From assembly GCF_003044185.1 (NCBI RefSeq), contig NZ_PYYB01000001.1, positions 1,818,978-1,882,977 of the forward strand: a stretch of 64,000 bases of DNA, read 5' to 3'. This document shows positions 13,908 through 36,700 of this stretch, in pieces; within the stretch, counting starts at the first letter, position 1, and each line of letters starts with the position of its first letter. Below the pieces are notes generated by a model. The model searched no databases. It saw only the letters and a program-made list of their open reading frames with translations, and had not been told where the DNA came from. The stretch comes from Paraconexibacter algicola. Lineage in GTDB: Bacteria; Actinomycetota; Thermoleophilia; Solirubrobacterales; Solirubrobacteraceae. A program made the translations under genes and the position numbers.

Positions 13908-14561
13908 ATGCGACTGCTCCTCGCCGAGGACGAGCCCAAGGTCGCCGCCGCGGTCGCCAAGGGCCTGCGCCGCCATGGCGCCGCCGTCGACGTCGCGCCC
14001 GACGGCGCCGTCGCGCTCCAGCACGCCCGCGTCCACCCGTACGACGTCGTCATCCTCGACCGCGACCTCCCCGAGGTCCACGGCGACCAGGTCTGCCGCA
14101 CGCTCAGCGCCGAGCAGCCCGAGACGAAGATCCTCATGCTCACCGCCGCCCGCACGACCGACGACCTCGTGCAGGGCCTGGCGATGGGCGCCGACGACTA
14201 CCTCGCCAAGCCGTTCCGGTTCGCCGAGCTCGTCGCGCGCGTCCACGCGCTCGCCCGCCGCGGCGGCGTCGCCCGCCCGACCGTGCTCGCGCACGGGGAC
14301 ATCGAGCTCGACCCGGCCCGCCGCACCGCCACCCGCGCCGGCCGCGACCTCGAGCTCAGCGCCAAGGAGTTCGGCGTCCTGCAGGCCCTGCTCGCCGCCG
14401 ACGGCGCCGTCGTCAGCCCCGAGGAGCTGCTCGAGCGCGTCTGGGACGCGAACGTCGACCCGTTCACGAACACCGTCCGCATGATCGTCATGAAGCTCCG
14501 CCGCAAGCTCGGCGAGCCCGCCGTCATCCACACCGTCCCGGGCGCCGGCTACCGCCTCTGA
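13908..14561 (+). CDS. OmpR-family response regulator
   Basis: A 217-residue response regulator: receiver domain (1-115) with acidic pocket E7-D8, phosphorylatable D51 and KPF, then an OmpR winged helix (about 125-215, ending NTVRMIVMKLRRKLG, VPGAGYRL). It starts directly after the TAG of the small exported protein and overlaps the kinase ATG by one base (TGATG). Its targets may include the adjacent 11-bp repeat sites, including those at htrA and moxR on either side. Confidence 0.87.
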   Translation: MRLLLAEDEPKVAAAVAKGLRRHGAAVDVAPDGAVALQHARVHPYDVVILDRDLPEVHGDQVCRTLSAEQPETKILMLTAARTTDDLVQGLAMGADDYLAKPFRFAELVARVHALARRGGVARPTVLAHGDIELDPARRTATRAGRDLELSAKEFGVLQALLAADGAVVSPEELLERVWDANVDPFTNTVRMIVMKLRRKLGEPAVIHTVPGAGYRL

Positions 14562-20533: not shown

Positions 20534-21199
20534 ATGCGGACCATCCTCGTCGTCGAGGACGACGCGCGGATCGGCGCGCTCGTCCGCGCCTACCTCGAGC
20601 GTGACGGCTTCGCGACCGTCTGGGCGCGCAGCGGCGACCAGGCGCGCGCCGAGCTGCCGCGTCACCGCTTCGACCTCGCGCTGCTGGACCTCGGGCTGCC
20701 CGACGTCGACGGGCTCGTGCTGTGCCGGGAGCTCGCCGATCGCCTGCCCGTGATCGTCGTCAGCGCCCGCGACGAGGAGTCCGACCGCGTGGCCGGGCTG
20801 GAGCTCGGCGCCGACGACTACGTGACCAAGCCGTTCAGCCCGCGCGAGCTCACCGCGCGCGTCCGCGCGGTGCTGCGCCGCGGTGAGCGCGCCGTGCCGA
20901 CGGGCCACGGGACGCTCGACCTGGGCGTGCTGCGGATCGACGTCGACGCGCACGAGGCGCGCGTCGACGACCACCCGATCGCGTTGACCGCGCGCGAGTT
21001 CGAGCTGCTCACGTACCTCGCGCGCCAGCGCGGCCGAGTCGTCGGACGGGACGAGCTGCTCGAGGCCGTCTGGGGCTACCGCTCCCCCGGCCAGACGCGC
21101 ACCGTCGACGTGCACGTCGCGCAGCTGCGCGCGCGCCTCGGCGTCCCCGACCTGATCCGCACCGTTCGCGGCGTGGGCTACAAGCTCGTGGTCCCATGA
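20534..21199 (+). CDS. OmpR-family response regulator, second system
   Basis: A 221-residue response regulator: receiver (1-115) with E8-D9-D10, phosphorylatable D52 and KPF, then a winged helix (about 130-220, ending VRTVRGVGYKLVVP). The start ATG 20534 follows CACCAT by 6 bases. The kinase ATG overlaps its stop by 4 bases (ATGA). Confidence 0.87.
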   Translation: MRTILVVEDDARIGALVRAYLERDGFATVWARSGDQARAELPRHRFDLALLDLGLPDVDGLVLCRELADRLPVIVVSARDEESDRVAGLELGADDYVTKPFSPRELTARVRAVLRRGERAVPTGHGTLDLGVLRIDVDAHEARVDDHPIALTAREFELLTYLARQRGRVVGRDELLEAVWGYRSPGQTRTVDVHVAQLRARLGVPDLIRTVRGVGYKLVVP

Positions 21200-31076: not shown

Positions 31077-33656
31077 TCAGTCCTGCATCAGGCCGAGCTT
31101 GCAGACCAGGCCGAACGCGGGGGCGGCCGCGCTCGCGCCGTCGCGGGCGGCGAGCGTGCGCGACGCCGTCTCGCTGACCGGCCGGATCCGCATCGCGGCC
31201 GCGGCGACGGCCGGGTCCGGGGCGACGGCCCCGAAGCGCCGCGGGACCTGCGCGAACGCGCCCCGCAGGTCGCGGCCGCTGCCGCGCGCGGCGCGGCTCG
31301 TGGTCACGCCGACGGCCTGCACGCGCCCGCGCGACACGCGGTACGCGTAGGTCGTGGCGCCCGCGCGCCGCACGACGATCCCGCCCGTCAGGCGCCGCAC
31401 GCCCGGCCGGCGCAGCAGCGCGCCCGCCGCCGTGCCCGGCCGCACGCCGGCCGCCTCATGCCCGGGCGCGCTGGAGGCGACGAGGTCGACGCGGCCGCTG
31501 CGCGCCCCGACGACCGCGACCGCGCGGCTGCGGACGGACCGCGCGCCGCGCACGCCCCACGTCCACGCGCGGCCGCGCCGCTCGGGCTGGCCCGCCGCGC
31601 GCAGCAGCGCGTCCGGGGTGGCGCCGAGGCGGATCGTGCCGAGCCCGCGCCGGGTCAGCCGCTGCCGCGGCTCGCGCGAGGTCAGCGGCGCGATGCCGTT
31701 CGTGCGCTCCCACATCTGCAGGTACGCCTCGGTGCCGCGCAGCAGGTCCTCGGCGATCTGCGGCCCGCCGAGCTTGCGGACCTCCTCGACCCAGTCGGCG
31801 TACAGGCCGTAGTGCGCGACGCCCTCACGGGCGTAGTCGAACGTGCGGCTGCCGGTGCGCTGGCGCTCGAACGTCACGCGTCCGTCGAGCGAGCGGAACG
31901 GGTAGGTGACCCGGGCCGGCGAGTCCTGCGGCAGCGGTGCGCCCTGCTCGGCGAGGCCGCCGAGGTCCGCGCCGAAGCCCCAGCCGAAGTAGAACGGGGA
32001 CTCGCCGTCCTTCGGGCGGTACTCCTTCCACCGCTCCACGAAGCGGCCGGCCGAGGACGCCTGCGGGTAGGCGAGGCCGCCGAGACGGCGCAGCCGCGGC
32101 CAGTTGTCCGGGTCCATCCAGGAGTGCGGGCTGATGACGCCCGAGTAGCCCTTCGCCTCGGCGAGCGTCAGCGTCGCGTCGACGGCGGCCTGCGACATGT
32201 GGTCGGGGTTGACGATCCAGCCGCGCTCCATCAGCCGCCGTACCGCGTGCGCGCCGAGGTCGGTCAGGCCGCGCGTGTTGCAGTGCGGGCCGGGCGGGTA
32301 GGCGGGCAGCGTGCCGCCGGGCACGCCGGCCTCCTTCAGTGCCTCGGGCACCGGGCCGCCCTGCGTCGGGACCTCGTTGTCGGTCAGCGCCGTGCCCGGC
32401 TCGCACGTCTTCGCGTCCCACCACCGTCCGGCGCTCAGCCGGTTGCCGAGGTTGACGATGATCCCGGAGGTCCCCTCGTCGAACCGGACCCCGCCGAGCG
32501 GGTTGTCGTACTTGCCGACCAGCAGGGAGGAGCGGACGCCGAGCCGGTGCAGCTCGGCCATGTCCCGGTCGATCTTCGCGGCGTCGCACGTCGGGGCCTC
32601 GACGCCCGAGCAGCCGAACGGCTCGCTGAGCTCCATCTCCAGGACGACCGCCATCTTCCCCGCGTTGACGACCTTCCGGGCCTCGAACGGGTCGGTGACG
32701 ATCCGGAACCAGCCCTTGCCGGGACCGCCGTTGAGCGCGTCGACGTACTCCTCCATCTGCCGGATCGACCGGACCGAGCGGCGCACCGTCTCCATCTCGT
32801 CACACGGCTGGTCGCGGTTGGTCTGCAGCAGGCAGAGGATCCGGTTCTCGTTGACGCCCATGACCATCAGGCGCATGCCGGACATCCAGACCCGCTCGAC
32901 CCACTTGTAGTACGTGCCCTCGTAGGTGAGGTTCGTCCGCGACCAGGAGTCGAGCGTCGGGTACCCAGCGGTGCTGTGCGGCGCGACCGGCGACCCGTAG
33001 CTGAGCAGGTTCTGGAACGGGGCGGCCGCCCCCCGGGGCCCCTCGATCTCCTCGCAGTCGGGCAGCGCGCGCGTGATCCCGTACGGGTGGAACGGCGCGC
33101 CGCAGTGGAAGCGCCCGCCGAAGTACAGGTAGGTCATCCAGTGCATGTGGCCGTCCATGAAGCCGCGGGTCTCCCCGTAGCTCGTGGTGCCGCGCGCGGG
33201 GGTGCCGGTGGCGTTGAGCTCGGCCTCGGGCAACCGCGGGCAGCCCTCGGCCGGGGCGGCCCGGACCGCCGGGGCGGAGCTCGCGGTGACCGTGGTGCCG
33301 TCGCGGCCCAGCGCGCGTCCCGGGTCGGTGGCCGGGGAGAGCCGGAAGCCGCCGCCCGGCACCTCGGCGACGGTCCAGTCCCCGGCCGGGGACGGGCCGG
33401 GCGCCGCGGTCGTGCCGTCGCCCGTGGCGGTCAGGAACCGCCGGTCGCCGGTGAGCAGCAGGTAGCCGCCCAGGCGGGTGGCCTGGAAGCGCAGCGGCCC
33501 GGCGACCGGGGCGCCGTCGGGTGCGGTGAGCGTGAAGCAGCCGCCCTGGAAGCCGTAGCGGTCGGCCGGGCCCGCGGCGGCGGCGCTCGCGGCGGTGGCG
33601 CCGGCGACGGACGCCGCGGTGGCGAGGAGGACGAGGACCCGGGAGCCGGCGCGCAT
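31077..33656 (-). CDS. exported M19/amidohydrolase-like metallohydrolase
   Basis: An 859-residue exported protein: signal peptide (1-28), an N-terminal beta region (about 33-130), then an amidohydrolase-type TIM barrel (about 165-680). Candidate metal-binding segments are FMDGHMHWM (167-174), VLEMELSEPF, GIIVNLGNRL, VNPDHMSQAAVD and ISPHSWMD. They resemble the order in membrane dipeptidases (M19), but the protein is far longer. A C-terminal beta region (about 690-800) and a tail with one Cys follow. Substrate unknown. The start ATG 33656 faces a promoter region shared with the nuclease. Confidence 0.65.
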   Translation of the reverse strand: MRAGSRVLVLLATAASVAGATAASAAAAGPADRYGFQGGCFTLTAPDGAPVAGPLRFQATRLGGYLLLTGDRRFLTATGDGTTAAPGPSPAGDWTVAEVPGGGFRLSPATDPGRALGRDGTTVTASSAPAVRAAPAEGCPRLPEAELNATGTPARGTTSYGETRGFMDGHMHWMTYLYFGGRFHCGAPFHPYGITRALPDCEEIEGPRGAAAPFQNLLSYGSPVAPHSTAGYPTLDSWSRTNLTYEGTYYKWVERVWMSGMRLMVMGVNENRILCLLQTNRDQPCDEMETVRRSVRSIRQMEEYVDALNGGPGKGWFRIVTDPFEARKVVNAGKMAVVLEMELSEPFGCSGVEAPTCDAAKIDRDMAELHRLGVRSSLLVGKYDNPLGGVRFDEGTSGIIVNLGNRLSAGRWWDAKTCEPGTALTDNEVPTQGGPVPEALKEAGVPGGTLPAYPPGPHCNTRGLTDLGAHAVRRLMERGWIVNPDHMSQAAVDATLTLAEAKGYSGVISPHSWMDPDNWPRLRRLGGLAYPQASSAGRFVERWKEYRPKDGESPFYFGWGFGADLGGLAEQGAPLPQDSPARVTYPFRSLDGRVTFERQRTGSRTFDYAREGVAHYGLYADWVEEVRKLGGPQIAEDLLRGTEAYLQMWERTNGIAPLTSREPRQRLTRRGLGTIRLGATPDALLRAAGQPERRGRAWTWGVRGARSVRSRAVAVVGARSGRVDLVASSAPGHEAAGVRPGTAAGALLRRPGVRRLTGGIVVRRAGATTYAYRVSRGRVQAVGVTTSRAARGSGRDLRGAFAQVPRRFGAVAPDPAVAAAAMRIRPVSETASRTLAARDGASAAAPAFGLVCKLGLMQD

Positions 33657-33724
33657 CCCGCGAGTCTTACATGAACGGTCACGTTCGTGTGACGGACCGT
33701 CGCGCTTCGACGCGGGCGCGCCAG

Positions 33725-33768
33725 GGTCACCGGACCTTCACCAGCCGGTCACGGTGCGGTAACGGGGG
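33725..33768 (+). promoter_or_regulatory. four-unit 11-bp PHO-box-like array
   Basis: Four consecutive 11-base units: GGTCACCGGAC, CTTCACCAGCC, GGTCACGGTGC, GGTAACGGGGG. Each has the form xTxAC(C/G). Streptomyces PhoP boxes are 11-bp direct repeats with consensus GTTCACC, so this closely fits. It ends 16 bases before the -10 of the nuclease/nucleotidase gene, where an activator would replace the -35. Confidence 0.6.
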
Positions 33769-33784
33769 GCCGGGGAGCCGCGAC

Positions 33785-33790
33785 TAGCGT
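33785..33790 (+). promoter_or_regulatory. -10 hexamer TAGCGT, leaderless nuclease start
   Basis: TAGCGT lies 8 bases before GTG 33799. Confidence 0.5.
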
Positions 33791-33798
33791 CGCCGCCC

Positions 33799-36700
33799 GT
33801 GATCCCCAAGTCGCTGGTCCCCGCCGTCCTCTGCTGCCTCGCCGCGCTCCCGGCGACCGCTGTGGCCGACACCACGGCCCACTCGCTCGCGTCCGGTCCG
33901 CTGAGCCAGGACTGGTCCAACGCCGGCCTCATCACGGTGGACGACAACTGGAGCGGCGTGCCCGCGATCCAGGGCTTCCGCGGCGACGACGTGGTCACCG
34001 CGACCGGCGTCGACCCCCGCACGGCGACCGCCGACTCGACCGTCCTGGACGTCAACGCCAACCAGACCGCGCCGAACACCTTCTCCACCGGTGGCGTGAC
34101 CGAGTTCGCGATCGCCAACCCGACGATCGCGCTCGCCGGCTCGGGGACCGCCGACGCGCCCGGCATCGTCGCGCGGGTCGACGCGACCGGCCGCAAGGAC
34201 GTGACGGTCAGCTTCAACGCCCGTGACATCGACGGCTCGGCCGACGACGCCGTGCAGTCCATCGCCGTCCAGTACCGCCTGGGCACGACGGGCGCCTTCA
34301 CCCGCACGGGGATGGCCGCCACCGACGGCTACGTCGCCGACGCGAGCACCGGCGGCACGGCGACCCAGGTCACGCCCGTCACCGTCACGCTGCCCGACGC
34401 CACCGACGGGCAGGCGTCCCTCGACATCCGCATCCTCACCACCAACGCGAACGGCAACGACGAGTGGATCGGCATCGACGACCTCACGGTCGGCTCGACC
34501 GCCGCGACCGTCGACCCGGAGCCCACGCCGACCCCCACGCCGACGCCGACCCCCACGCCGACCCCGACGCCCGAGCCGCCGACGGTGCGGCCGATCGCCG
34601 AGATCCAGGGGACCGGGGCGACCAGCCCGCTCGACGGCCAGACCGTCACCACCGAGGGCGTCGTCACCGCCTCCTACCCGACCGGTGGCCTCAACGGCTT
34701 CTATCTCCAGACCCCGGGCACCCCGGACACCCCGGGCGCCTCCGACGCGATCTTCGTCTACGGCGGACCCAGCGGGTTCGCGACGTCACCGGCGGTCGGG
34801 GACCCCGTCCGCGTCACCGGCACGGTCGGCGAGTTCAACACCGTCACCCAGATCACCGCCACGAGCGTCGCCGCCGCCCCGTCGGTCACCGGCACCGTGA
34901 CGCCCAAGACGACCGTTCCGGGCACCGACTGCGTCCTCCCGGGCACCGACTGCCTCGCCGGCACCGCGCTCGACGCCGCCCGCGAGCCGCACGAGGGCGA
35001 GCTGTTCCAGCCGACCGCCGACTGGACCGTCACCGACTCCTACGACGGCTCGCCGTTCCCGAGCACCTCCTCGAACTTCTTCGGCGAGATCGGCCTGGCG
35101 GCCGGCAGCGACCGCGCGCTCGTGCAGCCCACCGAGGTCCACGACGCCCAGACCGAGTCCGCGCTCGTCACCGCCCGCACCCGCTACAACGACGCCCACC
35201 GCATCGTGCTGGACGACGGCGCGACCGTGAACTACACGACGCAGACCGGCCAGCCGTACCCGTGGCTGACCCCGACGAACACCGTGCGCGTCGGCGCCGC
35301 CGTCACGTTCCCCAAGCCGGTCGTCCTCACCTACGGCTTCGGCACCTGGCGGGTGCTCCCGCAGTCCCAGGCGCAGGGCGCGTCGACCGACAAGGTCGCC
35401 TTCGAGCAGGACCGCCCGGCCGCCCCCGCCGCGGTCGGCGGGGACATCCGCCTGGCCACCTTCAACGTCCTGAACTTCTTCCCGACCACCGGCGAGGAGT
35501 TCGTCTCCTCGGGCCTCGGGAGCTGCACGTACTTCACCGACCGGGCCGGGCAGCGCACGACGACCCGTGACTGCGGCGCCAGCGGCCCGCGCGGCGCGGC
35601 CAACGACGCCAACCTCGCCCGGCAGCGCGACAAGATCGTCGACGCGATCGGCAAGCTCGGCGCGGACGTCGTCGCGCTCGAGGAGATCGAGAACTCCGTG
35701 AAGTTCGGCAAGCCGCGCGACTTCGCGCTCGACGCGCTCGTGACCGCGCTGAACGCCGCGCAGGGCGCCGGCACCTGGGCGGCCGTCCCGTCCCCGCCCG
35801 CGGCGGAGCTGCCCGACCTCGCCGAGCAGGACGTCATCCGGCCGGCGTTCATCTACAAGCCCGCGAAGGTCGCGCTCGTCGGCGCCTCGAAGGTCCTGAC
35901 CGGCAGCGCCGCGTTCGCCAACGCGCGGGAGCCGCTCGGCCAGGTCTTCAAGGCGGTCGGGCGCCCCGACAGCCAGGGCTACCTCGTCGTCGCCAACCAC
36001 TTCAAGTCCAAGGGCTCCGGGGCCGACGACGGCACCGGCCAGGGGCTCGCCAACCCCGACCGCGTCGCGCAGGCCCAGGCGCTCGTGACCTTCGCCGACG
36101 ACCTCAAGACCGCGCGCGGCGTCGACCGCGTCTTCCTCACCGGCGACTTCAACGCGTACTCCAAGGAGGACCCGATCCAGGTCCTCGAGGACGCCGGCTA
36201 CGACGCCCTGGAGGCCGACGACCCGACCCGCGAGAGCTACAACTTCGGGGGCCTCGACGGGTCGCTGGACCACGTGCTCGCCAACGCGGCCGCGAAGACC
36301 GACGTCGCCGGTGTCGACGTCTGGCAGATCAACGCCAACGAGTCCGTCTTCTACGAGTACAGCCGCTTCAACGCCAACGTCACGAACCTCTACGACGCGG
36401 GGCCCTACCGCTCCTCCGACCACAACCCGGAGGTCGTCGGCATCGACCTGCCGGCACGTCCGCCGGTCGAGGTCCAGATCCTCGGGACCAACGACTTCCA
36501 CGGCCGCCTGGTCGACGACCCGCAGTCGACCGCGGCGGGCGCAGCGGTCCTCTCCGGGGCGGTCAAGCAGCTCCGCGCGCAGAACCCCAACACGGTCTTC
36601 GCCGCGGCGGGTGACCTCATCGGCGCGACGACCTTCGACTCGTTCATCGACCAGGACAAGCCGACGATCGACGCGCTGAACGAGGCCGGTCTCGAGGTCT

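What the first reader, a model, noticed from the sequence alone, without database searches (positions are those of the whole stretch)
33725..33799. Four-unit PHO-box-like array before a nuclease/5'-nucleotidase
Four 11-base units in strict phase, each with a TxAC core, end 16 bases before a -10 and a leaderless GTG. Streptomyces PhoP boxes are 11-bp direct repeats of GTTCACC type. The gene encodes an exported DNase fused to a 5'-nucleotidase, an ideal phosphate-scavenging enzyme, so site and product point to the same signal. A PhoP-like control of extracellular DNA use outside Streptomyces and Mycobacterium would be a useful extension.
Basis: partly seen in the sequence, partly recalled or inferred. 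Interest (0 to 1): 0.7.

Follow-up and report, generated by a model that had tools for sequence, protein, structure and literature searches.

The report
Phosphate-starvation switch before secreted DNase
A four-repeat DNA switch, also found before phosphate-uptake genes in this bacterium and its relatives, sits in front of a secreted enzyme that should strip phosphate from free DNA, so the cell probably eats environmental DNA for phosphate when phosphate runs short.

Summary
Four 11-bp units with cores TCAC, TCAC, TCAC and TAAC (33726-33769) precede a -10-like TAGCGT and a GTG start. The GTG opens an 1855-aa ExeM/NucH DNase fused to a 5'-nucleotidase. The same array stands before the genome's own pstS and before pstS in relatives: 29 of 30 pstS loci beat shuffles at p<0.05. 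A profile built only from relatives' pstS arrays makes the window array the one outstanding hit in 64 kb (20.2 against -7.5). Genome-wide the pattern gives 35 hits against 2 for the reversed control; downstream genes include two PhoX, a PhoD and ppk. Nuclease genes of relatives carry it in 6 of 22 loci tested. Phosphate control of a secreted nuclease and a 5'-nucleotidase is published for Corynebacterium glutamicum, so this is a new member of a known kind. Less expected is the likely regulator: a pst-linked response regulator with a degenerate receiver, plus a receiver-less paralogue beside pstS. Binding and phosphate response are untested.

The parts
33726..33769 (+). Four-unit 11-bp direct-repeat operator (PHO-box type): GTCACCGGACC TTCACCAGCCG GTCACGGTGCG GTAACGGGGGG
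   Evidence: Read; best of all window sites for a profile built from relatives' pstS arrays, 20.2 against -7.5 for the next; exact match of the four-core pattern, one of 3 in the genome
33785..33790 (+). -10-like hexamer TAGCGT; the last array unit lies about where a -35 would be
   Evidence: TAGCGT, TACGGT or TACGCT stands at the same distance after the array in six relatives' nuclease genes (L035, L037, L038, L039, L040, L047), and TACGGT, TACCGT or TAGTCT follows other arrays of this genome
33799..39366 (+). ExeM/NucH-family DNase fused to a 5'-nucleotidase (Metallophos + 5_nucleotid_C) with Ig-like repeats, apparently exported, 1855 aa, GTG start
   Evidence: NF033681 510.9 bits, cut-off 300; PF03372, PF00149, PF02872 and PF16640 above their cut-offs; ORF

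Best explanation
The array is a PHO-box-type operator of this lineage's phosphate regulon. An OmpR/PhoB-family winged-helix protein binds the four 11-bp units head to tail. The best candidates are the response regulator encoded just after phoU in the pst operon and its receiver-less paralogue encoded just before pstS. The last unit lies about in place of a -35 element, so bound protein recruits RNA polymerase to the TAGCGT -10 when phosphate is scarce. The near-leaderless transcript makes a secreted DNase/5'-nucleotidase that turns extracellular DNA into nucleosides and phosphate, which the co-regulated Pst system imports. Shown by sequence: the array, its sharing with phosphate genes, its conservation, and the enzyme domains. 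Inferred: binding, which protein binds, activation by phosphate starvation, export and enzymatic activity.
For: Own pstS has the same four-unit array (unit 4 GTAAC) at L062:8428. 30 pstS regions were examined (own plus 29 relatives; the best 30 of the 55 genomes with a PstS match among 61 searched): 29 of 30 beat dinucleotide shuffles at p<0.05, L099 has p=0.078; spacing 11 is the best of spacings 8-14 in 29 and tied with 14 in L097. A relatives-only profile singles out the window array. Genome-wide 35 pattern matches against 2 in the control; downstream genes include PhoX twice, PhoD, ppk, pstS2 and a PBP_like_2 pstS3. Nuclease genes of relatives have it: 6 of 22 relatives' loci tested at p<0.02, core 14 of 16 in five of the six, with the -10 at the same distance. 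Precedent: PhoR~P binds nucH and ushA promoters in C. glutamicum.
Against: The two other relatives over the NF033681 cut-off do not help much: G014 has no array in the held upstream DNA (p=0.299) and G012 has only two good units (PSSM -0.5, core 10; p=0.010). 16 of 22 relatives' nuclease loci tested show none at p<0.02; most of those are distant matches below the cut-off. The units here carry C or G after TCAC where the pst arrays mostly carry A. A second OmpR-type regulator, close to Mycobacterium PhoP, exists in this genome and has its own 11-bp TCAC-like repeat, so binding by the pst-linked regulator is not proven. No expression data.
Confidence: 0.86

Rival explanations
1. The array is read by a different OmpR-family regulator, most likely the Mycobacterium-PhoP-like two-component system at C1:415 kb, and answers to another signal (pH, envelope stress), not phosphate.
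For: That regulator's DNA-binding domain is closest to M. tuberculosis PhoP (89.3 bits over 75 aa) and its own promoter holds an 11-bp-phased TCACAGC/TCTCAGG/GCACAGG repeat, a 3-mismatch hit of the array pattern.
Against: M. tuberculosis PhoP sites are TCACAGC direct repeats (recalled), and no unit of the window array has TCACA. The window array shares its GTAAC fourth unit and four-unit layout with the pstS arrays.
Confidence: 0.08
2. The nuclease array is a fortuitous or decayed repeat with no function; only the pst arrays work.
For: 16 of 22 relatives' nuclease loci tested show no array at p<0.02.
Against: Exact match to the four-core pattern, 3 exact in the genome; profile score well above all 40 shuffled windows; an array with a matching -10 before related nuclease genes in relatives of two other genera, g10 and g19.
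Confidence: 0.05
3. The array conservation at pstS is mainly a coding constraint: it overlaps the 3' end of the receiver-less regulator gene, whose TAA stop lies in the fourth unit, and the likeness of the window array to it is then accidental.
For: In this genome the stop codon TAA of the ORF at L062:8090-8464 falls in GTAAC of the pstS array; the small protein ends in a SHxFH-type tail in many relatives.
Against: 16 of 30 pstS loci have a hit to the small gene; the other 14 still have the array. The window array lies between two divergent genes and still ends in GTAAC.
Confidence: 0.01

Closest known systems
Streptomyces PhoP PHO boxes (11-nt direct repeat units, GTTCACC core)
   Same: 11-nt direct repeats, four core units in some operators, units overlapping the -35 region, targets include pstS, ppk and phosphatases (PMC4415409 and PMC7866108, passages)
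   Different: Here unit 4 is GTAAC, units vary as GTCAC/TTCAC, and the candidate regulator is pst-linked with a degenerate receiver and no kinase motif found nearby
Corynebacterium glutamicum PhoSR control of nucH and ushA
   Same: Phosphate starvation control of a secreted NucH nuclease and a secreted 5'-nucleotidase (PMC3353115, passages)
   Different: There two separate genes, and the motif is an 8-bp tandem repeat with a 3-bp linker (CCTGTGAA). Here one fused protein and four TCAC-type units
Vibrio cholerae Xds, PhoB-induced
   Same: Homologue of ExeM under phosphate-stress control (PMC6746945, passages)
   Different: Gram-negative; separate periplasmic phosphatases do the dephosphorylation
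E. coli PhoB box
   Same: Tandem 11-nt units bound head to tail (PMC4415409, passages)
   Different: Core is CTGTCAT

Membership tests
PHO-box type operator (PhoB/PhoP family) | Tandem 11-nt direct repeat units | tested here: met
   Four units at 33726-33769; in the pstS regions spacing 11 is best of 8-14 in 29 of 30, tied in one
PHO-box type operator (PhoB/PhoP family) | Same motif before pst and other phosphate genes of the same genome | tested here: met
   pstS1, pstS2, PhoX twice, PhoD, ppk
PHO-box type operator (PhoB/PhoP family) | Promoter-proximal unit at about the -35 position before a -10 | tested here: met
   TAGCGT 15 bases after unit 4; same layout in relatives; by sequence only, no start-site mapping
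PHO-box type operator (PhoB/PhoP family) | Bound by the phosphate response regulator | not testable with these tools
   Needs EMSA or footprint
PHO-box type operator (PhoB/PhoP family) | Gene induced on phosphate limitation | not testable with these tools
   No expression data
Streptomyces GTTCACC consensus | GTTCACC heptamer in units | tested here: inconclusive
   Units 1 and 2 read GGTCACC and CTTCACC (6 of 7 each), units 3 and 4 GGTCACG and GGTAACG
Mycobacterium PhoP site TCACAGC N4 TCACAGC (recalled) | TCACAGC units | tested here: not met
   No unit continues TCACA
ExeM/NucH extracellular endonuclease (NF033681) | Score over curated cut-off | tested here: met
   510.9 bits, cut-off 300
5'-nucleotidase (Metallophos + 5_nucleotid_C) | Both domains over cut-off, in order | tested here: met
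   PF00149 32.9 bits (cut-off 21.5) and PF02872 129.4 bits (cut-off 23.6)
Canonical OmpR/PhoB response regulator (pst-linked gene) | Winged-helix and receiver domains | tested here: met
   Trans_reg_C 84.9 bits, Response_reg 32.8 bits (cut-off 30.2)
Canonical OmpR/PhoB response regulator (pst-linked gene) | Complete phosphorylation site (acid pair, Asp, Thr/Ser, Lys) | tested here: not met
   Second acid-pair position is T in this genome and non-acidic in 35 of 43 rows; phospho-Asp is N in 6 of 43 (D in this genome); Lys kept in 43 of 43

The most novel reading that the evidence does not exclude
The phosphate regulon of this order is not run by an ordinary PhoR-PhoB pair. A conserved pst-linked response regulator with a degenerate receiver, possibly controlled by PhoU/Pst contact instead of phosphorylation, shares the four-unit array with a receiver-less winged-helix paralogue encoded between two such arrays just upstream of pstS. 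The secreted DNase/5'-nucleotidase is one output of this unusual switch.
Probability: 0.3. Interest if true: 0.72.

Novelty: new member of a known kind. Interest (0 to 1): 0.5.

Why it matters
It gives a sequence-level phosphate regulon, with operator, promoter layout and target list, for a high-GC order for which no description turned up in the papers searched (the order's name is my guess). It includes a single-protein route from environmental DNA to phosphate. The shared four-unit array lets targets be predicted genome by genome, and it draws attention to a pst-linked regulator pair that lacks the usual phosphorylation machinery, which bears on how Pst and PhoU signal.

Tried and rejected
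A first scan of pstS upstream regions read loci of minus-strand genes on the wrong side and found arrays only in the plus-strand ones; one search repeats it with orientation corrected, and only one search is used.

Coding constraint as the cause of the pstS array was considered and rejected: 14 of 30 pstS loci without a hit to the small regulator gene still carry the array.

A second array for the divergent gene at 31077-33656 was looked for in 33641-33740 on the minus strand; the best four-unit score at spacing 11 (9 of 16) equals that at spacing 9, so no array is claimed.

Named relatives of the enzyme (Micromonospora L022, Glutamicibacter L023) show no four-unit TCAC array above shuffles in the held upstream DNA (best 12 and 10, shuffled maximum 13), so the array at this gene is not shown outside the relatives searched.

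A histidine-kinase motif was sought by a simple regular expression in ORFs over 150 aa of the 30 response-regulator loci and 30 pstS loci (about 1.5 kb flanks); none was found. This does not exclude a kinase elsewhere.

The organism could not be named with the tools; from gene content and composition I would guess Solirubrobacterales (Thermoleophilia), which is recall and untested.

Full report
The observation. In the register of the profile used later, the four units are GTCACCGGACC (33726), TTCACCAGCCG (33737), GTCACGGTGCG (33748) and GTAACGGGGGG (33759). Fifteen bases follow, then TAGCGT (33785-33790), eight bases, and GTG at 33799. That GTG is the first start codon of an 1855-codon frame. 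The protein matches NF033681 (ExeM/NucH extracellular endonuclease, 510.9 bits, cut-off 300), followed by a calcineurin-like phosphoesterase domain, a 5'-nucleotidase C-terminal domain and Ig-like repeats. A signal peptide is suggested by the N-terminus; it was not tested with a program.

Phosphate genes of the same genome. The window lies in a 4.74-Mb genome in six contigs, G000. PstB hits led to two pst operons, read. Operon 1 is pstS-pstC-pstA-pstB-phoU followed by an OmpR-type regulator gene. Just before its pstS stands TTCACACCCTT TTCACAACGAG GGCACACCTCG GTAACAGACTC (L062:8428), with the same fourth core as in the window. About 410 bases further upstream a second array (L062:8017) precedes a small winged-helix gene. 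Operon 2 has an array on its pstS strand.

Whole-genome search. The pattern TCAC-N7-TCAC-N7-TCAC-N7-TMAC with up to 3 mismatches gives 35 matches, 26 and 9 by strand, against 2 for the reversed pattern. By my grouping of overlapping matches these are 24 places. Nine of the 24 have a register with at most 2 mismatches. They precede the window gene, the small winged-helix gene, pstS1, pstS2, two PhoX phosphatases, a PHP/glycosyltransferase-type gene, a xylose-isomerase-like TIM barrel and a hydrophobic protein without a Pfam match. Among the fifteen 3-mismatch places are ppk, PhoD, a PBP_like_2 (pstS-like) gene with the array in reverse orientation, a PAP2/CDP-alcohol phosphatidyltransferase pair, and the promoter of a PhoP-like two-component system; the other ten were not shown to be phosphate-related and some may be chance. 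The pattern was designed from the window and pst arrays, so those hits are not independent evidence; PhoX, PhoD and ppk are.

Conservation at pstS. A search with the own PstS found matches in 55 of 61 genomes; the best 30 gave loci. After correcting the strand (one search was misoriented), spacing 11 gives the best four-unit score among spacings 8-14 in 29 of 30 and ties with 14 in L097; 29 of 30 exceed 500 dinucleotide shuffles at p<0.05, the exception being L099 at p=0.078. The consensus is TTCACA-N5, TTCACA-N5, GNCACA-N5, GTAACAGRCTG, which shows that units 3 and 4 differ systematically from units 1 and 2. A profile from the 29 relatives' arrays, with nothing from this genome, scores the window array 20.2; the next site in 64 kb scores -7.5, and the best sites of 40 shuffled windows average -3.0 with a maximum of 10.0. 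The profile's arrays had been picked by the TCAC core, a choice prompted by the window array.

Conservation at the nuclease. NF033681 has matches in 23 of 101 genomes, over its cut-off in 3. 23 loci (own and 22 of relatives, one genome twice) had enough upstream DNA; one more had only 10 bases and was dropped. Seven of 23, own included, exceed shuffles at p<0.02. In G016, G036, G042, G050 and G056 the array has core score 14 of 16 with TAGCGT, TACGGT or TACGCT at the same distance; G025 has the same layout at p=0.053. G012, one of the two other genomes with a match over the cut-off, has only two good units, opposite an apparent separate nucleotidase gene (not searched); the other, G014, has none.

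Promoter layout. In this genome the start codon lies 33-35 bases after the fourth core at the window gene, the winged-helix gene, the TIM-barrel gene, the hydrophobic-protein gene and the PAP2 gene, and TACGGT, TACCGT or TAGTCT follows other arrays. The near-leaderless arrangement therefore looks typical of several arrays, not peculiar to this gene. For ppk the ORF start that I used falls inside the array, so its true start is probably further downstream.

The likely regulator. The gene after phoU encodes a Trans_reg_C/Response_reg protein. Matches exist in 41 of 41 genomes searched, 40 places among them at 58% identity or more. In an alignment of 43 rows (one gene occurs twice), the second acid-pair position is T in this genome and non-acidic in 35 of 43 rows, the phospho-acceptor is N in 6 of 43 (D in this genome), and the active-site Lys is kept in 43 of 43. 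A receiver-less paralogue (mostly 97-127 aa, about 50% identical to the DNA-binding domain) lies close to pstS in 16 of 30 pstS loci. In this genome its gene lies between two arrays, and its stop codon lies inside the fourth unit of the second. No kinase motif was found within the flanks held; a kinase elsewhere is possible. Another regulator, near C1:415 kb, resembles M. tuberculosis PhoP and is a rival binder.

Comparison with print. PHO boxes as 11-nt direct repeats, with GTTCACC in S. coelicolor and CTGTCAT in E. coli, and Ppk, UshA, PhoA and PhoD among common targets: passages of PMC4415409. Four-unit operators and units overlapping -35 in Streptomyces: passages of PMC7866108. PhoR~P binding to nucH and ushA promoters in C. 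glutamicum: passages of PMC3353115. PhoB induction of xds: passages of PMC6746945. Searches joining Thermoleophilia with Pho regulon, and Solirubrobacter with PHO-box terms, listed nothing on such an operator (listings only), nor did searches for a receiver-less or atypical Pho regulator (listings only). The assignment of this genome to that class is my guess.

Verdict. The array is very probably a working PHO-box operator and the gene a member of the phosphate regulon. The kind is known; the member, its fused enzyme under this operator and the operator's lineage-specific form were not found in print in those searches. The regulator pair is the part most worth following.

Noticed in passing
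L062:8090-8464 and L062:13252-14061 (own genome C1, about 2.953 and 2.958 Mb): Receiver-less winged-helix gene between two four-unit arrays just upstream of pstS, and a pst-linked response regulator with a degenerate receiver; both recur in relatives (16 of 30 pstS loci; 43-row alignment).
   Followed up: partly
L078:1470-1560, minus strand (own genome C1:415628-415664): A Mycobacterium-PhoP-like two-component system has an 11-bp-phased TCACAGC/TCTCAGG/GCACAGG repeat at its own promoter, suggesting autoregulation.
   Followed up: partly
own genome C1:2936763-2936821, minus strand (L087, L131): An array of about five units in reverse orientation stands just before a plus-strand pstS-like gene (PBP_like_2).
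   Followed up: no
own genome C1:967575 (L133), C1:2916893 (L128) and C1:2106901 (L130): Arrays precede a PAP2/CDP-alcohol phosphatidyltransferase pair, a PHP/glycosyltransferase-type gene and a hydrophobic protein without a Pfam match, which might be phosphate-saving lipid remodelling genes.
   Followed up: partly
window 33656-33700, minus strand: The divergent gene 31077-33656 (weak Peptidase_M19 match, below cut-off) also seems to start very close to a TAAGAC -10-like site, with GTCAC and GTGAC motifs 11 bases apart upstream; no array is claimed.
   Followed up: partly
window about 14340-14558 and 20972-21187: Two further OmpR-type DNA-binding domains lie in the window (G000:C1:1833317 and 1839949).
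   Followed up: no
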